64,000 nucleotides of DNA from Bacilli bacterium (GTDB lineage: Bacteria > Bacillota_I > Bacilli_A > Izemoplasmatales > Hujiaoplasmataceae), in contig JAGYOE010000004.1 of the NCBI GenBank assembly GCA_018399755.1, positions 1-64,000 of the forward strand, in the 5' to 3' direction. The notes under the pieces are model-generated. The model was not told where the DNA came from and made no database searches. It worked only from the letters and a program-made list of their open reading frames with translations. The position numbers were made by a program, and so were the translations under genes. Positions 19,241 to 39,502 of the stretch are shown piece after piece. Each line of letters starts with the position of its first letter. The first letter of the stretch is position 1.

Positions 19241-19250
19241 ATAAAAAAAC

Positions 19251-19279
19251 ATGATCTCCGATATTAAATGGAGATCATT
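19251..19279. terminator. Terminator between convergent plsY and yneF
   Basis: ATGATCTCC-gatattaaat-GGAGATCAT then T-run. Confidence 0.75.
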
Positions 19280-19282
19280 TTT

Positions 19283-19507
19283 TTATTGATTTTGTTTCAT
19301 TGATGCCATAACCTGTCTTACTTGTTTTTCAGAAGGCTTTCTGCCCATCTGTGACATCATTGCACGAATCATTTTTTCATTAATAGGTGGATTTTTATCT
19401 AAATAGCTTTTAAAGTATTTTCTTGATAAAAAGAAACCTACTATTAATCCAACAATTAAAGCAACTACTATTAAAACAATAGCTAACCATAGTTCCATAA
19501 TTTTCAC
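19283..19507 (-). CDS. yneF: YneF family (UPF0154) protein
   Basis: N-terminal TM then '[43 protein letters not shown]'. Confidence 0.88.
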
Positions 19508-19654
19508 TCCTTTAAACTCATACTAATTGTATCAAATTAGACATTATTATTCAAGTTTATTATTCGAGATTATTTTTTATTTTCTTATTTACAAAAAGCC
19601 TAAAGATTGTTAAAATATACATGTCAAAGTTTCTTATAGGGAGGATATAAAAAT

Positions 19655-19822
19655 ATGCCAAGATTTATTTTAGACACATGTATAGCATGTGGCACATGTA
19701 AAGAGAACTGCCCAGTTGATTGCATTGAAGAAGGCGAACCATATGTAATCGATGAAGATGCTTGTATTGATTGTGGAGTTTGTGAAACTAACTGCCCAGT
19801 TGATTGCATCATCACAAAATAA
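19655..19822 (+). CDS. 2[4Fe-4S] ferredoxin, 55 aa
   Basis: Own translation: MPRFILDTCIACGTCKENCPVDCIEEGEPYVIDEDACIDCGVCETNCPVDCIITK; RBS GGGAGG at 19639-19644. Missing from the ORF track (too short). Confidence 0.95.
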   Translation: MPRFILDTCIACGTCKENCPVDCIEEGEPYVIDEDACIDCGVCETNCPVDCIITK

Positions 19823-19831
19823 TTTATTTAA

Positions 19832-19860
19832 AAATAGCGGAAAATTCCGCTATTTTTTTT
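19832..19860 (+). terminator. Terminator downstream of ferredoxin
   Basis: AATAGCGGAA-aa-TTCCGCTATTTTTTTT. Confidence 0.8.
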
Positions 19861-31048: not shown

Positions 31049-31630
31049 ATGGGTTTAGGACCAGTATTTCTTTTATCAGATTTAACAATTCTTATAATAA
31101 CACTAGTAATTGCTTTGTTAATTATTTTCTTTTCGCTTTACTTTTATAGTCGCAATTTGAACGACAGAAAATATAAAAGACAGTTAAAAAAAATAAATAA
31201 AATTAAAGAGAAACGCTATAATGCAAATATTATTATCGATAAGATCTATAACAAATATACTATCGATGAAACAAACACCTATAAATCTTTAAAACGACGT
31301 GGTAAAAGAATTGTAAAAAAATATTATCACTTTTATGCAAAAGAACTTAGTAAACTTGTTGATTTAAAAAGTAAAATCTCACCAAATAAAAACCAAAATA
31401 AATTAGTTATCATTCTTAAAAATAAATCAAACTCAATTCTTGGTAAGTGGTATAGTGCAAAATCGATAAAAAAATTAATTAAATTAATAAATAAACATCA
31501 GCTGCTATTTGACTCGCTAGCTTATTTATATGAATTGCCGCCTTATATTGATGAAAACAAATCTTATCATCTAGAAAATCATGATAATCAAAATTTCCTT
31601 AGTTATAAAATTGTCGATGAAATAAAATAA
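31049..31630 (+). CDS. Hypothetical single-TM, lysine-rich protein
   Basis: 193 aa; one N-terminal TM then long basic region; RBS aaggag upstream. Confidence 0.6.
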   Translation: MGLGPVFLLSDLTILIITLVIALLIIFFSLYFYSRNLNDRKYKRQLKKINKIKEKRYNANIIIDKIYNKYTIDETNTYKSLKRRGKRIVKKYYHFYAKELSKLVDLKSKISPNKNQNKLVIILKNKSNSILGKWYSAKSIKKLIKLINKHQLLFDSLAYLYELPPYIDENKSYHLENHDNQNFLSYKIVDEIK

Positions 31631-33682: not shown

Positions 33683-33738
33683 TTATTTAATTCACAATAA
33701 TTATGATATCATAATTTATCAATTAAATACAAATAAAA

Positions 33739-33762
33739 GACTAAAAACCAAAAGTTTTTAGC
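33739..33762 (-). terminator. Terminator downstream of jetC
   Basis: CTAAAAAC-tttt-GTTTTTAG then T-rich on minus strand. Confidence 0.65.
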
Positions 33763-33770
33763 CCTTATTA

Positions 33771-36700
33771 TTAGTTGTTTTTTGTTAATTGCATCGTCCT
33801 TGCTTTTTTACCTTCTCTTAAAGTAACTATTGTTGTATCGGTATATTTTTGTAATACTTCCATTTTTTGCGGTGGAGTAGATAACATTATCTGCACAGGT
33901 AAATATTGAATAAAATTCATCATTGCTTTAATTCTAGATGTATCCATTTTATCAAATACCTCATCAAATAATATCAATCCAATTGATTGTTGATTAACTT
34001 TTCTTGATGCTTGGTCAAATACTCTAACAAATGAAGCTAATGTAGCCACATAAAACGGTACTTGTGTTTCTCCTCCAGATTTTTCCTTAAATACTTTTGA
34101 ATAATTTATCTTATCTCCAGAAGTATTTGTAATTAATATATCATAATCCATATATGTTCTATAATCAGTAAATTTATTAATACTACCTTTAGAGTTTAAA
34201 TCTTCAGATGCAAGATTTATAAATAACTCTTCAAGTTGCCTTTGATATTTCATTTCAAAATCATAATTGAAAATTTCTTCGCCTGATTTAACTGCTTCTT
34301 CACTTAATACCATATCATAATACTCGCCATATTCTTTGCTTTTAGGAAAGATAAATTCATAGGTATCTTCCCCAAAACGAATGCCTTTTAATGTTTCATT
34401 AATTTTTTTAATTTCATCTTGAGCTGAGATGATATAATTTCTTAATTTTGCCATAAAATCTTCTTTAAACAGTTTTTCGGCAACTTCTCTTGCTTCTCTA
34501 ACTTTAGACTCATATTTTACCAATTCAGATTTAATTAATTTATTTCTTTCATCTAGGTATTCATCCATATATTCTAAACCGAATTGGTAACTTAAATTAT
34601 AGTTTTGCGTGTATTGGATTTGTTTTGTTCTTAATGAATCTTCAAGATTTTCAATGTTATTTAATTCTCTGGTAATTTTTTCACGATAGTTTTCAACAAT
34701 ATTTCCAATACCATTACTTGCAACCTCATCCGCAAATAATTTTTCAGCCTTTTCTTTTAAAACTGGATTTTCTTCTGATTGAGTAGATATTTTCGTTTGC
34801 AAATTACTTAGTTCTGTTTCAAGTTCTAACAATTTATCATGAATATTACCTTCTCTATTTTCAAGTGATCCGCTTTTTTCATAAGCTTTTTGACGGCTAA
34901 TATTATAATCTTTAATTTCTTCTTTTATATTTTCGTATTCAATTCTTAACTCTTTTAAACTTTCTTGCGGTAAATTATGCTTTTTGTCTGCTAAATTTTT
35001 GCGTTTTTCCTTTAGACTATCAATTGAATAATAATTTTTTAACATATTTATATAGTTATCAAGATTAAGTTTTTTAATCAAAGATACCTCTTCAGTAATA
35101 TTGTTAATTTTTTTATTAATTCGTTGATGTTCAATACTAAGCTCTTTTGCCTTTTTACGCCAACTATCTAATTGAGCAGTTTTAGCATTTTTCCCGATAA
35201 AAGGTTTATCTTTTAATTTCCAAAGAGATCTAACAGTATATGAACGATAAACCATACCGTTTAAAGTAATCGCTTGGGAATATTTTTCCAACTCATTAAC
35301 TTCATCAACCATGATCAAATTTCCACATATCATATTAATAAAGTTCTTTGCGTCTTTATTGTCAGAAGTTATGATAGAAGCTAATGATTTATCTCTATAA
35401 GTATCAAACTTCTGAATTTTTTTAGTATTAACTAAACCAATACCATATATATTTAAGCTATCTTTAATTTGATTGTATACACTTAAAGCTAAATCAAAAT
35501 ATCTTGGTTCTACAATTAAATTAAAACGTTGTCTTCCTAAATAGTCTTCAATAGTATCTTGCCATTTTGAATCAGTTATTTCTAATAATTCACATAAAAT
35601 ATGAACATTAATATCTACATTATATTGATGTTTTACTCCTTCAACAATCTTATTTTGTAATCTTAAAATCATTGGGTCATATTTTAATTTATTGTTTTCT
35701 AACCCTTTTAATGTTTGATATACATCGTTAATTTCTTCAACTAATTCTTGTTTTAAATGTTGATATTTTCCATATTTTGAACGATTATCATTAACTATAT
35801 CATTTAGGTCTTTTTCAATTTGTAATAGTTTTAGTTTTGTTGGCTCATAGTTTTCATCATCAATATGTGCCAAATCTATTTTTGCTAGTTGTTTATATGG
35901 TTTTTGGTTATATTCAGAATTTAAATCTTCAATAACCTCTTTCATTGTTTTTGCTTTTCCTTTTGCATAGTTTCTTATTTCTTCTTGTTCATTAATTTTT
36001 TTAGTTAGTTCATTAATTTCTTTATCATAGATTTCAGACGCTTTAAAACTATCATTATTCGATAACATTGAATATACTTCTTTAGCTCTTTCATCTAGTA
36101 TATCTAATTGATCGTTTATTTCTTCAATTAATTTTTTGTTTTGTTCACGATCAAGAATAACTTTTTCTAACTTCTTATTCTCTTTATTAATTTTATCTTG
36201 GATGTTTTCAACTTCTAGTAATTTAAGAAAATACTCATAAAATTCTTTCTGAGAGATATTTTCTTGTATTTCTTCATAAGTTTTTGCGATATTATTTAAA
36301 TCGTTTACTTTTTCTTTGATTATTTTTAAAGTTGCTTCTAAATCTTTATATGCTCTAATTGATTCTTTAATTGATTCAACGTCTAATATTCTTTCTTCTA
36401 ATAAATATTTATAGATAAATTCTTTTACATCTGATATTGGCTTAAACGCTAATGCTTTTGGTAATAAAGAAAAGTAGTTTTCATTAATTGAACCAAAGCA
36501 CTTTCTAAAGGCTAATTTAGCTTCTCTTCTTGTTAAATGAATTTTATCAGCTTGTTTTGTTTTTTTAAAGTTAATGGTTGTTAAAATCACGCCTTCTTCA
36601 TCAATAAATAAAGATTCTTTTATCTGGTCATTATATTCATAGAAAATAACTTTAGGAGGAATTATTTCGCCAATAATATCAATAACTGAGCCAACAGTAA

Positions 36701-37010
36701 AATATTTTTCATTTACTTCATCATAAAACTCTAAAGCAATGTGGCCAGTAGTATCTCCATCTCTTAAATATTCTTGATTATCGATACCAAGTTTACATTT
36801 AACATACCCACGTAAATCCCGTTTGCTTTTATCATTAGCAGCTAAATTAAATATTTGATCACCAGCAGTTAAAATAAATGCGATTGCATCAACAATAGTT
36901 GATTTGCCCGTAGCATTTTGGCCGGTTATTAAAGTATTGTTTTTAATCTCAATTGTCTCATTAGCAAAATAATGCCAATTAATAAGCCTTATTTTAGTTA
37001 ACTTCTTCAT
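33771..37010 (-). CDS. jetC: Wadjet/MksB-like SMC ATPase (JetC); start trimmed to MKKLTKIRLINWHYF
   Basis: Walker A 'ITGQNATGKSTIVDAIAFIL'; long coiled coils; 'LCELLEITDSKWQDTIEDYLGRQRFNLIVEPRYF'; signature 'SGGETQVPFYVATLASF'; Walker B 'IGLILFDEVFDKMD'. Confidence 0.85.
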   Translation of the reverse strand: MKKLTKIRLINWHYFANETIEIKNNTLITGQNATGKSTIVDAIAFILTAGDQIFNLAANDKSKRDLRGYVKCKLGIDNQEYLRDGDTTGHIALEFYDEVNEKYFTVGSVIDIIGEIIPPKVIFYEYNDQIKESLFIDEEGVILTTINFKKTKQADKIHLTRREAKLAFRKCFGSINENYFSLLPKALAFKPISDVKEFIYKYLLEERILDVESIKESIRAYKDLEATLKIIKEKVNDLNNIAKTYEEIQENISQKEFYEYFLKLLEVENIQDKINKENKKLEKVILDREQNKKLIEEINDQLDILDERAKEVYSMLSNNDSFKASEIYDKEINELTKKINEQEEIRNYAKGKAKTMKEVIEDLNSEYNQKPYKQLAKIDLAHIDDENYEPTKLKLLQIEKDLNDIVNDNRSKYGKYQHLKQELVEEINDVYQTLKGLENNKLKYDPMILRLQNKIVEGVKHQYNVDINVHILCELLEITDSKWQDTIEDYLGRQRFNLIVEPRYFDLALSVYNQIKDSLNIYGIGLVNTKKIQKFDTYRDKSLASIITSDNKDAKNFINMICGNLIMVDEVNELEKYSQAITLNGMVYRSYTVRSLWKLKDKPFIGKNAKTAQLDSWRKKAKELSIEHQRINKKINNITEEVSLIKKLNLDNYINMLKNYYSIDSLKEKRKNLADKKHNLPQESLKELRIEYENIKEEIKDYNISRQKAYEKSGSLENREGNIHDKLLELETELSNLQTKISTQSEENPVLKEKAEKLFADEVASNGIGNIVENYREKITRELNNIENLEDSLRTKQIQYTQNYNLSYQFGLEYMDEYLDERNKLIKSELVKYESKVREAREVAEKLFKEDFMAKLRNYIISAQDEIKKINETLKGIRFGEDTYEFIFPKSKEYGEYYDMVLSEEAVKSGEEIFNYDFEMKYQRQLEELFINLASEDLNSKGSINKFTDYRTYMDYDILITNTSGDKINYSKVFKEKSGGETQVPFYVATLASFVRVFDQASRKVNQQSIGLILFDEVFDKMDTSRIKAMMNFIQYLPVQIMLSTPPQKMEVLQKYTDTTIVTLREGKKARTMQLTKNN

Positions 37011-37599
37011 TATTTTCACTTCCAGTTTTAGTTTCAATATTTGTGATAAAATTATAAACATCATTAATGGTTTGGGTATTTATTGCTAAGAGTATTGTCG
37101 GATATATTACTATTGGTGTGGTTGATTTAGTTATATCACCGAGAGTTTCAATTAGATTATATCTTTTAAATAAACGTAAATTTTTAACTAAATCAGTTTT
37201 ATTAATCTTCTTTTTAAGTTCTAAAGAATCATAGTAATCATGAATTTCATCAACTTTTATAACAACATTATCATTTACAGAGGTTTTAACTAAATGTTCA
37301 TGAAATAATATTCTTAAAATTAAAAGAATTATTGTTTCTTCTTTTTTAAGTCTAAGCAAATTATTGTTTTCACGATGAAGCAATTGAATAGCACCTAATT
37401 CACGATTTAAAACTAATTCAAAGTCCATCACATTAAAATATTCATCAAAATATTCCTTATAACTTATAACAAAATAATACATTTCTTTATTATCGTTTTT
37501 ATCTCGGGCTAAAAAGCTATTAGCTAACAAACGCAAACACACCTTAGCAAACATCTTTTGTTGTCCAATATTTAATTCATCAAAGCCTTCTAAAATCAT
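36994..37599 (-). CDS. jetB: Wadjet/MksE-like KITE subunit (JetB, DUF4194-like)
   Basis: 201 aa between kleisin and SMC genes; 'LLANSFLARDKNDNKEMYYFVISYKEYFDEYFNVMDFELVLNRELGAIQL'. Confidence 0.75.
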   Translation of the reverse strand: MILEGFDELNIGQQKMFAKVCLRLLANSFLARDKNDNKEMYYFVISYKEYFDEYFNVMDFELVLNRELGAIQLLHRENNNLLRLKKEETIILLILRILFHEHLVKTSVNDNVVIKVDEIHDYYDSLELKKKINKTDLVKNLRLFKRYNLIETLGDITKSTTPIVIYPTILLAINTQTINDVYNFITNIETKTGSENNEEVN

Positions 37600-38997
37600 T
37601 TAGTTTTCCCCCTTTAATATTTCAAAGTCATCAATTGTAAATCTTGGATTCTTAATCTTTTTACCTAAAGGATTAATATAGTAATTCATTTCGTCCCCAG
37701 CATAAACAAGAATGTATAATAATCTTAATATTGCTTCATCACTCATATTGTCATTAATTATCTCACTCGCCCTAATCAAATGATTATCTTTAAAATACTC
37801 ATTTAAGTATTTTTCGATAACATCTTCGGTGTATTTCAAACTCTCAAACTCATCGTAGGGCATAGATCAAATTGATTATCATTTTCTTCAAGGAAACTGA
37901 TTTTCAATATGCTTGTACATACCTCTTGGGTAGTATGTAATATGATTCTTTTAGGAAATTTGTTGGTGAGTCGTTAATGTAAATAAAGGCTTAATTATAC
38001 CCATAGCTTTATTAGTTTTATTGTCCTTGATATTTTCTGCGGTAAACCGCAAAATTTTTGTTAACTTTGTAATTACATTTTCATCATTAGATAATAAAAA
38101 CTTTATTTTAGCAATTGTTGTATTAACATATACCTTATTCTTTTCATCGATTTCATCAATAATATATGAAATCGAATTATAAATATCAATAATATCATCG
38201 ATTTTTTTGTTGACTTTCATCATTGCTAAATCATAATTATTATGATTCTTAATCAAATGGTCTTTTGCCAAAATTTCCATTACCATTTTATCTTCTTGCA
38301 TAGCTTCTAATTTCTTAACAATATCAGCTCGATATTTATTAATATTATCACTAGTCTTTAATCTGCGATATGCTTTATCAACTAATTCTACCTTATAATT
38401 AACCAACAGATTAATTAAGTCTTTAATTTCAGAATTATCAACAATAGATTTTATATAAAACTTAAGTCTTGAATCAAGTTTTCTTATTTCTCTAATAAAG
38501 GCAATAGTGTTTTTATAAACTTGATCTAATACCATTGCATATTCACCATAGTCATTATTCAACAATGAATAAACCGTGTATATATAGCCTCTAAACTCAT
38601 GACCTTCTTGATCTTCATCATAATATGAGTCACTTGCAATATCTTTTAAAGCTTCAATTATAGTTATAGCGTAATCTCTAAAATTTAATATTTCTTCATA
38701 GTTGTTATTAACATCAATATCAATCCATTCTGTCTTTTCAAGTCTTCTTAAGATTTGATTTGCTCGATCACGGTTTGTTAATTCAGTTTCTAAATCTTCA
38801 GCTTCTAACTCTTCATCTAGAGGATTAATATCTAAATAATCTATAAGCACTTGTCTTGCAAGATTTTTATCCATCCCTAAGATTGAACCTTGTTCATACA
38901 CTCTAAACAATTCTAATAAACAGTTTATATATATTGATTTATTCTTACTAGATAATAGATTGAAAAAATTATTTGGTATTATATCAAATACTCTCAT
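37600..38997 (-). pseudogene. jetA: Wadjet/MksF-like kleisin (JetA, DUF5716-like), disrupted at 3' part
   Basis: 348-aa ORF (37951-38997) and 87-aa ORF (37600-37863) lie in the same frame separated by in-frame TAA (37951-37953) and further stops; the intervening 87 nt keeps coding-like sequence in shifted frames. 5' position in a jetABC-like operon. Confidence 0.6.
38916..38928. promoter_or_regulatory. Intragenic copy of the padR-promoter palindrome
   Basis: ATAAACAGTTTAT, equal to the reverse complement of 39384-39396. Confidence 0.35.
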
Positions 38998-39009
38998 GTA
39001 ATCACTTCC

Positions 39010-39360
39010 TTATTCATAGCGTTCATAATTGAATTCTCCACTGACTAAACTAGATAATTTATTTTCTAAATTTATCCAGTCTTTTCTAAATTGTTCGAGG
39101 TGCTTTTTACCACTTTTATTAAGGCGATAATAACGACGACTCATCCCTTTTTTGTTTTTTTGCTTATAAGTAGATATTTTACCATCTTTTAACAATCTTT
39201 TTAAGGCAATATATAAGGTAGCTTCGTTTAAGTTAATGTTTTTTTTGCTTACTGATTCAATAATTTTTGCAATTTCATAACCATAACTATCATATTTTTC
39301 TAAAATTGAAAGAATAATATAGTCTGTAAAACCACGGACATGATCACTAGAATTAGACAT
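39010..39360 (-). CDS. PadR family transcriptional regulator (ATG start at 39360; the ORF track's GTG start is at 39369)
   Basis: 'DYIILSILEKYDSYGYEIAKIIE..NEATLYIALKRLLKDGKIS..KGMSRRYYRLNKSGKKHLEQF' PadR wHTH. Confidence 0.9.
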   Translation of the reverse strand: MSNSSDHVRGFTDYIILSILEKYDSYGYEIAKIIESVSKKNINLNEATLYIALKRLLKDGKISTYKQKNKKGMSRRYYRLNKSGKKHLEQFRKDWINLENKLSSLVSGEFNYERYE

Positions 39361-39383
39361 TATTATCACCTCGCTTTCTATAT

Positions 39384-39426
39384 ATAAACTGTTTATGTAT
39401 AAATCATTTATACTTAAACTGTTTAT
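39384..39426. promoter_or_regulatory. Triple 15-bp-phased palindromic operator upstream of padR-jetABC
   Basis: ATAAAC-T-GTTTAT (centre 39390), GTATAAAT-C-ATTTATAC (centre 39405), TAAAC-T-GTTTA (centre 39420). Confidence 0.7.
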
Positions 39427-39471
39427 AGTATAATATATTTTTAATTGTTTGTAAATATAATTTCAAAAAAA

Positions 39472-39502
39472 ACCAAAAAAAATACCAGAAAATCTGGTAT
39501 TA
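39472..39502 (-). terminator. Terminator downstream of dnaJ
   Basis: ATACCAGA-aaa-TCTGGTAT with T-run on minus strand. Confidence 0.75.

What the first reader, a model, noticed from the sequence alone, without database searches (positions are those of the whole stretch)
33771..39369. PadR-controlled Wadjet/MksBEF-like condensin operon that appears to lack the JetD (MksG) nuclease
Seen: four same-strand genes padR, jetA-like (disrupted), jetB-like, jetC-like (Walker A GQNATGKST, SGGETQVPFYVA, DEVFDKMD). No Toprim-like JetD ORF follows; a terminator and then rsmE come next. Known: canonical Wadjet (JetABCD) restricts circular plasmids through JetD cleavage. Inference: a jetD-less, PadR-linked form may act as an accessory condensin, use a trans-encoded nuclease, or be a decaying defense locus.
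Basis: partly seen in the sequence, partly recalled or inferred. Interest (0 to 1): 0.8.

Follow-up and report, generated by a model that had tools for sequence, protein, structure and literature searches.

The report
Nuclease-free Wadjet core as sole condensin
A bacterial anti-plasmid machine that has lost its DNA-cutting part is kept, under its own repressor, in almost every member of a family of wall-less-type bacteria that have no ordinary chromosome-organising SMC complex, which suggests that a defence machine was re-used as the cell's chromosome organiser.

Summary
The locus is real: on the minus strand, padR (39369-39010), jetA (38997-37600, frame broken), jetB (37599-36994) and jetC (37010-33771), with no jetD. 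Type I Wadjet profiles hit all three jet genes. JetA is found in 30 of 34 genomes of the window's family and 7 of 7 of a second family of the order (Izemoplasmatales by record titles). JetD occurs in 0 of 90 genomes of the order. Canonical Smc-ScpAB is absent too: ScpA 0/90, ScpB 0/90 over cut-off, Smc 1/90. jetABC sits between dnaJ and rsmE throughout the family, evolves as slowly as dnaJ, and has a conserved promoter followed by a 15-bp-period operator array. In 395 genomes of the class, jetD-less JetABC is the only SMC-type complex of several families, while most genomes with both JetABC and ScpA carry jetD. One origin of the jetD-less state is rejected (AU p=2e-5). Best reading: JetABC lost its nuclease and became the resident condensin, as proposed for MukBEF. 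The break in jetA is private to this assembly (artefact or recent decay). Function is inferred from genomes only; some sister families have no SMC complex at all, so essentiality is not shown.

The parts
39427..39455 (-). promoter of padR-jetABC (TTTACA, 17 nt, TATACT)
   Evidence: consensus scan; same position and near-identical hexamers upstream of padR in relatives
39378..39426 (-). operator array: three 15-bp-period copies of ATAAnCAnnTTATnTATAA, directly downstream of the -10; probable PadR sites
   Evidence: at least two sites scoring 11 or more of 15 in all 29 loci examined, mostly 15 bp apart; 45-bp inverted repeat at 39383-39427. PadR binding is inferred
39010..39360 (-). padR, PadR-family regulator (ATG at 39360 preceded by GAGGTGAT; the listed ORF begins at a GTG at 39369)
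   Evidence: PF03551 65.9 bits; present before jetA in family f1 loci that cover the position, absent from jetABC loci of other families
37600..38997 (-). jetA (kleisin, DUF5716), reading frame broken around 37865-37955
   Evidence: PF18982 201.8 and 27.9 bits for the two pieces; 470-codon alignment to intact L031 jetA; indels shown
36994..37599 (-). jetB (KITE subunit, DUF4194)
   Evidence: PF13835 100.3 bits; PDLC00479 JetB1 1e-58
33771..37010 (-). jetC (SMC ATPase: Walker A GQNATGKS, signature SGGE, Walker B LILFDEVF)
   Evidence: PDLC00519 JetC1 994.6 bits; PDB JetC chains are the only solved relatives; motifs present in all 60 JetC compared
33736..33766 (-). intrinsic terminator after jetC
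39481..39501 (-). intrinsic terminator after dnaJ, separating the heat-shock genes from padR-jetABC

Best explanation
padR-jetABC encodes a nuclease-free, Wadjet type I-derived SMC complex that works as the cell's own condensin. JetC dimers bridged by the JetA kleisin and JetB KITE subunits load on the chromosome and extrude or hold DNA loops with ATP. There is no JetD, so meeting a small circle or stalling on DNA does not lead to cleavage. The complex takes the place of Smc-ScpAB, which the order has lost. PadR represses its own promoter through the 15-bp-period operator array and so holds condensin dosage steady or tunes it to a signal. SHOWN: gene content, synteny, absence of JetD/ScpA/ScpB/Smc matches, purifying selection, operator conservation, rejection of a single jetD-less clade. 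INFERRED: loop extrusion, chromosomal role, PadR binding and ligand, direction of change (loss of jetD).
For: JetA in 30/34 genomes of family f1 and 7/7 of f3; JetA or JetC in 32/34 of f1. JetD_C 0/90, ScpA 0/90, ScpB 0/90 over cut-off, Smc 1/90, with controls that work in the same searches. Fixed position dnaJ-padR-jetABC-rsmE-mtaB in f1 and dnaK-dnaJ-jetABC in f3 (L117-L119), so inherited vertically. dN/dS of jetC 0.04-0.08, like dnaJ/dnaK (0.04-0.09), lower than rsmE 0.21-0.24 and mtaB 0.10-0.18. Class-wide: JetA and ScpA strongly anti-correlated (13 both, 102 JetA only, 168 ScpA only, 112 neither); strong JetD in 9/13 JetA+ScpA+ genomes but 7/102 JetA+ScpA- genomes; in G153, G229, G375 and G421 that jetD lies next to a second jetA while the resident jetABC has none. 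In family f22 jetC is followed by the cell-division gene sepF in 6/6 jetD-less loci. Conserved promoter-operator.
Against: No functional data. Sister family f2 (49 genomes) and families f7, f18 and most of f16 lack both JetABC and Smc-ScpAB, so an SMC complex seems dispensable in this class and 'replacement' could be coincidence of loss. jetA is broken in the very genome of the window. The genomes are not phylogenetically independent, so the Fisher p-values overstate significance. f10 keeps jetD-less JetABC beside ScpA (L157-L159), so loss of JetD does not require loss of Smc. The JetB N-terminal tail reported to touch JetD is shorter in most but not all jetD-less families.
Confidence: 0.66

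Rival explanations
1. Still a defence system: JetABC catches plasmids or phage DNA and either silences them without cutting or uses an unrelated nuclease encoded elsewhere.
For: The subunits score as Wadjet type I. PadR control with an operator array could mean induction on demand.
Against: Near-universal, mostly single-copy, fixed-position, slow-evolving, never with JetD in 90 genomes, which is unlike the patchy distribution of defence genes. No nuclease gene is conserved beside it. True jetABCD occurs as a separate second copy in some related genomes.
Confidence: 0.17
2. An accessory, non-essential MksBEF-type condensin on its way out: Smc-ScpAB was lost for other reasons, this order copes without an SMC complex, and JetABC is a dispensable remnant that is decaying in the window's lineage.
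For: Family f2 and others have no SMC complex found at all. jetA is broken here.
Against: 30/34 and 7/7 retention, dN/dS at housekeeping level, no other broken jetA in the order.
Confidence: 0.14
3. The jetD gene is only missing from an incomplete assembly.
For: The window's genome is about 80% complete.
Against: 0/90 in the order, including single-contig genomes G006 and G007. The place after jetC is occupied by rsmE in the f1 loci that cover it (mtaB in L038), not by jetD.
Confidence: 0.02

Closest known systems
Wadjet type I (JetABCD / MksBEFG)
   Same: JetA1, JetB1, JetC1 profiles, gene order A-B-C, SMC ATPase motifs
   Different: no JetD/MksG nuclease in operon, genome or order; PadR and operator array instead; conserved chromosomal position
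MksBEF of Pseudomonas aeruginosa (chromosomal condensin; PMC7485682)
   Same: a three-subunit MukBEF-like complex studied as a chromosome organiser
   Different: [quoted passage not shown] here it is the only SMC-type complex found
MukBEF
   Same: proposed to have replaced Smc-ScpAB and to descend from a Wadjet-like system (PMC10586767)
   Different: different phylum and lineage; these proteins match JetABC profiles, and a replacement here would be an independent event
MksB of Borrelia burgdorferi (PMC10406323)
   Same: Mks-type protein acting on chromosome folding
   Different: Borrelia has Smc and lacks MksE and MksF; here the full A-B-C set is present and Smc is absent

Membership tests
Wadjet type I (JetABCD) | JetA kleisin (DUF5716) | tested here: met
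   PF18982 and PDLC00442; frame broken in the window only
Wadjet type I (JetABCD) | JetB KITE subunit (DUF4194) | tested here: met
   PF13835 100 bits, PDLC00479
Wadjet type I (JetABCD) | JetC SMC ATPase with Walker A, signature, Walker B | tested here: met
   PDLC00519 994.6 bits; motif check
Wadjet type I (JetABCD) | JetD Toprim nuclease | tested here: not met
   absent from operon, genome and all 90 genomes of the order
Wadjet type I (JetABCD) | restriction of small circular plasmids | not testable with these tools
   needs a transformation assay
MksBEF condensin | MukBEF-like B-E-F operon without nuclease | tested here: met
   gene maps; no JetD
MksBEF condensin | membership by MksE profile | tested here: inconclusive
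   PF21980 26.1 bits, just below its cut-off of 27; DUF4194 fits far better
MksBEF condensin | acts in chromosome organisation | not testable with these tools
   only indirect: present where Smc-ScpAB is absent; sepF linkage in f22
Smc-ScpAB | Smc equivalog plus ScpA and ScpB | tested here: not met
   TIGR02168 46.8 bits against cut-off 567; ScpA 0/90, ScpB 0/90 over cut-off
PadR autoregulated operon | PadR protein with conserved repeats at its own promoter | tested here: met
   repeat array in 29/29 loci
PadR autoregulated operon | PadR binds the repeats and represses | not testable with these tools
   needs EMSA or footprinting

The most novel reading that the evidence does not exclude
Wadjet defence cores were turned into resident chromosomal condensins several times independently in one bacterial class: at least two to four changes between the jetD-bearing and jetD-less state (one origin rejected), with Smc-ScpAB missing in every jetD-less family tested except f10. 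This is the defence-to-housekeeping route proposed for MukBEF, visible in many stages (Smc plus JetABCD, Smc plus JetABC, JetABC only, no SMC complex).
Probability: 0.5. Interest if true: 0.86.

Novelty: new variant of a known kind. Interest (0 to 1): 0.7.

Why it matters
Whether MukBEF descends from an anti-plasmid Wadjet system is an open proposal (PMC10586767). A clade in which nuclease-free JetABC is the only SMC complex would give a second case, with cultured relatives, in which to test what JetABC does to a chromosome once the nuclease is gone. It also warns that defence-finding tools will label these chromosomal genes as Wadjet, and it shows a bacterial class with Smc, JetABC or no SMC complex in closely related families.

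Tried and rejected
(1) The IFDR motif at the JetB N-terminus, reported to contact JetD (PMC10586767), was looked for as a marker: no literal motif in jetD-bearing homologues here. The tail is about 24 residues in f1, f3, f5, f22, f24, f25 and most f9 against 29-37 in most jetD-bearing loci, but f12 and f10 jetD-less loci also have 31-36: inconclusive. (2) 'All jetD-less JetC form one clade' was tested and rejected, lnL difference 173, p-AU 1.96e-5, after removing four long branches. (3) A conserved nuclease or other partner beside jetABC in other families: none seen; neighbours include sepF, peptidase C1, DEAD helicase, DUF3137, transporters. (4) General assembly error as cause of the broken jetA: not supported by the intact collinear neighbours, but a local artefact cannot be excluded. 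(6) A search for papers naming JetD-less Wadjet gave nothing; this covers open-licence papers only. (7) Structure prediction was not used because profile matches were decisive.

Full report
WHAT IS THERE. The window is a 64-kb piece of a 1.2-Mb, 76-contig draft genome, about 80% complete, from the order that relatives' record titles call Izemoplasmatales. On the minus strand lie padR, jetA, jetB and jetC, between the dnaK-dnaJ heat-shock genes and rsmE-mtaB. Pfam and PADLOC identify JetA (PF18982), JetB (DUF4194, JetB1) and JetC (JetC1, 994.6 bits). JetC is far from canonical Smc (46.8 bits against a cut-off of 567), and the only solved sequence relatives are JetC chains of Wadjet. An intrinsic terminator after dnaJ and another after jetC make padR-jetABC look like its own transcription unit.

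THE BROKEN jetA. Several small insertions and deletions within about 100 bp around 37865-37955 interrupt the reading frame. Both ends stay in register with the intact 468-residue protein of L031. All other jetA matches in the order are free of stops. Other genes shared with L031 in the surrounding 16 kb are unbroken. So either the assembly is wrong in one spot or this lineage has just begun to lose jetA. Nothing here decides between them.

NO JetD, AND NO Smc-ScpAB. JetD_C (PF09983) has no match in this genome or in any of 90 genomes of the order. The same search finds it in C. glutamicum and in 30 genomes of the class. Unexpectedly, the order also lacks canonical condensin: ScpA 0/90, ScpB 0/90 over cut-off, Smc 1/90, a single contig of G076. 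JetA is in 30/34 genomes of the window's family f1, 7/7 of f3 and 0/49 of f2. JetC raises f1 to 32/34, and the rest are drafts.

VERTICAL, CONSTRAINED, REGULATED. In f1 the order is dnaK-dnaJ-padR-jetA-jetB-jetC-rsmE-mtaB, sometimes with insertions upstream. In f3 jetABC also follows dnaJ, without padR. Against L031, L047 and L032, jetC has dN/dS of 0.04-0.08, as low as dnaJ and dnaK and lower than rsmE and mtaB (synonymous sites are near saturation, so the ratios are rough). Upstream of padR all 29 loci examined share TTTACA-N17-TATAAT-like hexamers followed by two or more copies of ATAAnCAnnTTATnTATAA, mostly every 15 bp, running toward the ribosome-binding site. The motif was read off these same loci, so the comparison with shuffles (112 sites against 16.8 expected) is a description, not an independent test. 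PadR binding is inferred.

THE CLASS-WIDE PATTERN. In 395 genomes of the class JetA occurs in 115, ScpA in 181 (180 over cut-off) and JetD_C in 30. JetA and ScpA coincide in 13 genomes (families f10, f15, f21); 102 have JetA only, 168 ScpA only, 112 neither. In JetA+ScpA+ genomes a strong JetD is present in 9/13, in JetA+ScpA- genomes in 7/102. In G153, G229, G375 and G421 that jetD lies beside a second jetA. G211 is an exception with one jetABCD and no ScpA. So jetD-less JetABC is the only SMC-type complex found in the JetA-bearing genomes of f1, f3, f5, f9, f12, f20, f22, f24 and f25. Of the 81 non-order genomes with neither gene, nearly all were searched twice more: none of 80 has a JetC, and three have a clear Smc. 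So families f7, f18, most of f16, parts of f9 and f12, and f2, appear to have no SMC complex. This is the main reason for caution about 'replacement'.

HISTORY. In a JetC tree of 60 sequences, f1, f3, f22 and L050 form one jetD-less group (SH-aLRT 100), f9, f20, f24 and f25 another, and f12, f5 and f10 lie elsewhere among jetD-bearing sequences. With four long branches removed the label still needs four changes, of which well-supported branches force two, and a single jetD-less clade is rejected (p-AU 1.96e-5). The root is not known, so losses of jetD are the likelier but unproven direction.

MECHANISM. The most likely role is a condensin. The SMC motor, kleisin and KITE are complete (in relatives), and the executing subunit for cleavage is missing (JetD alone cuts DNA, JetABC supplies the shape and size sensing; PMC10586767). 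In f22 jetC is followed by sepF in six of six jetD-less loci, which ties the complex to cell division there. [quoted passage not shown] The present order would be an independent example. I found no paper describing JetD-less Wadjet as sole condensin, but subscription papers and preprints were not searched.

MEMBERSHIP. It is not a Wadjet system in the strict sense, since the nuclease was tested for and is absent. It is a JetABC core of Wadjet type I that probably works like MksBEF/MukBEF. Novelty: new variant of a known kind.

Noticed in passing
L142, L143, L144, L146, L148, L150 (family f22), just after jetC: A sepF (Z-ring anchor) gene follows jetC in all six jetD-less f22 loci, overlapping it by 4 bp in L143 and lying close behind it in the others.
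   Followed up: partly
G034-G082 (family f2) and families f7, f18, f16 of the class: Many near-complete genomes have neither Smc-ScpAB nor JetABC; how they organise and segregate chromosomes is unexplained.
   Followed up: partly
G077:C26:24690-24938 (L163), G073:C41, G040:C50: Weak, sub-cut-off ScpB-like matches in about 150-aa ORFs of SMC-less f2 genomes; could be a relic KITE or an unrelated winged helix.
   Followed up: no
G076:C29:357-3935 (L059): One full-length canonical Smc in an f2 genome that has no ScpA or ScpB match; contaminating contig or recent transfer.
   Followed up: no
L157, L158, L159 (family f10): jetD-less JetABC beside an intact ScpA, in G129 together with a complete jetABCD in the same genome: a possible intermediate stage.
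   Followed up: partly
window 31049-31630 (+): 193-aa protein with no Pfam match, convergent with mtaB and conserved in place across the family (38-76% identity).
   Followed up: no
window 19241-19858: 618-bp stretch without an ORF of 100 aa or more and without an Rfam match.
   Followed up: no
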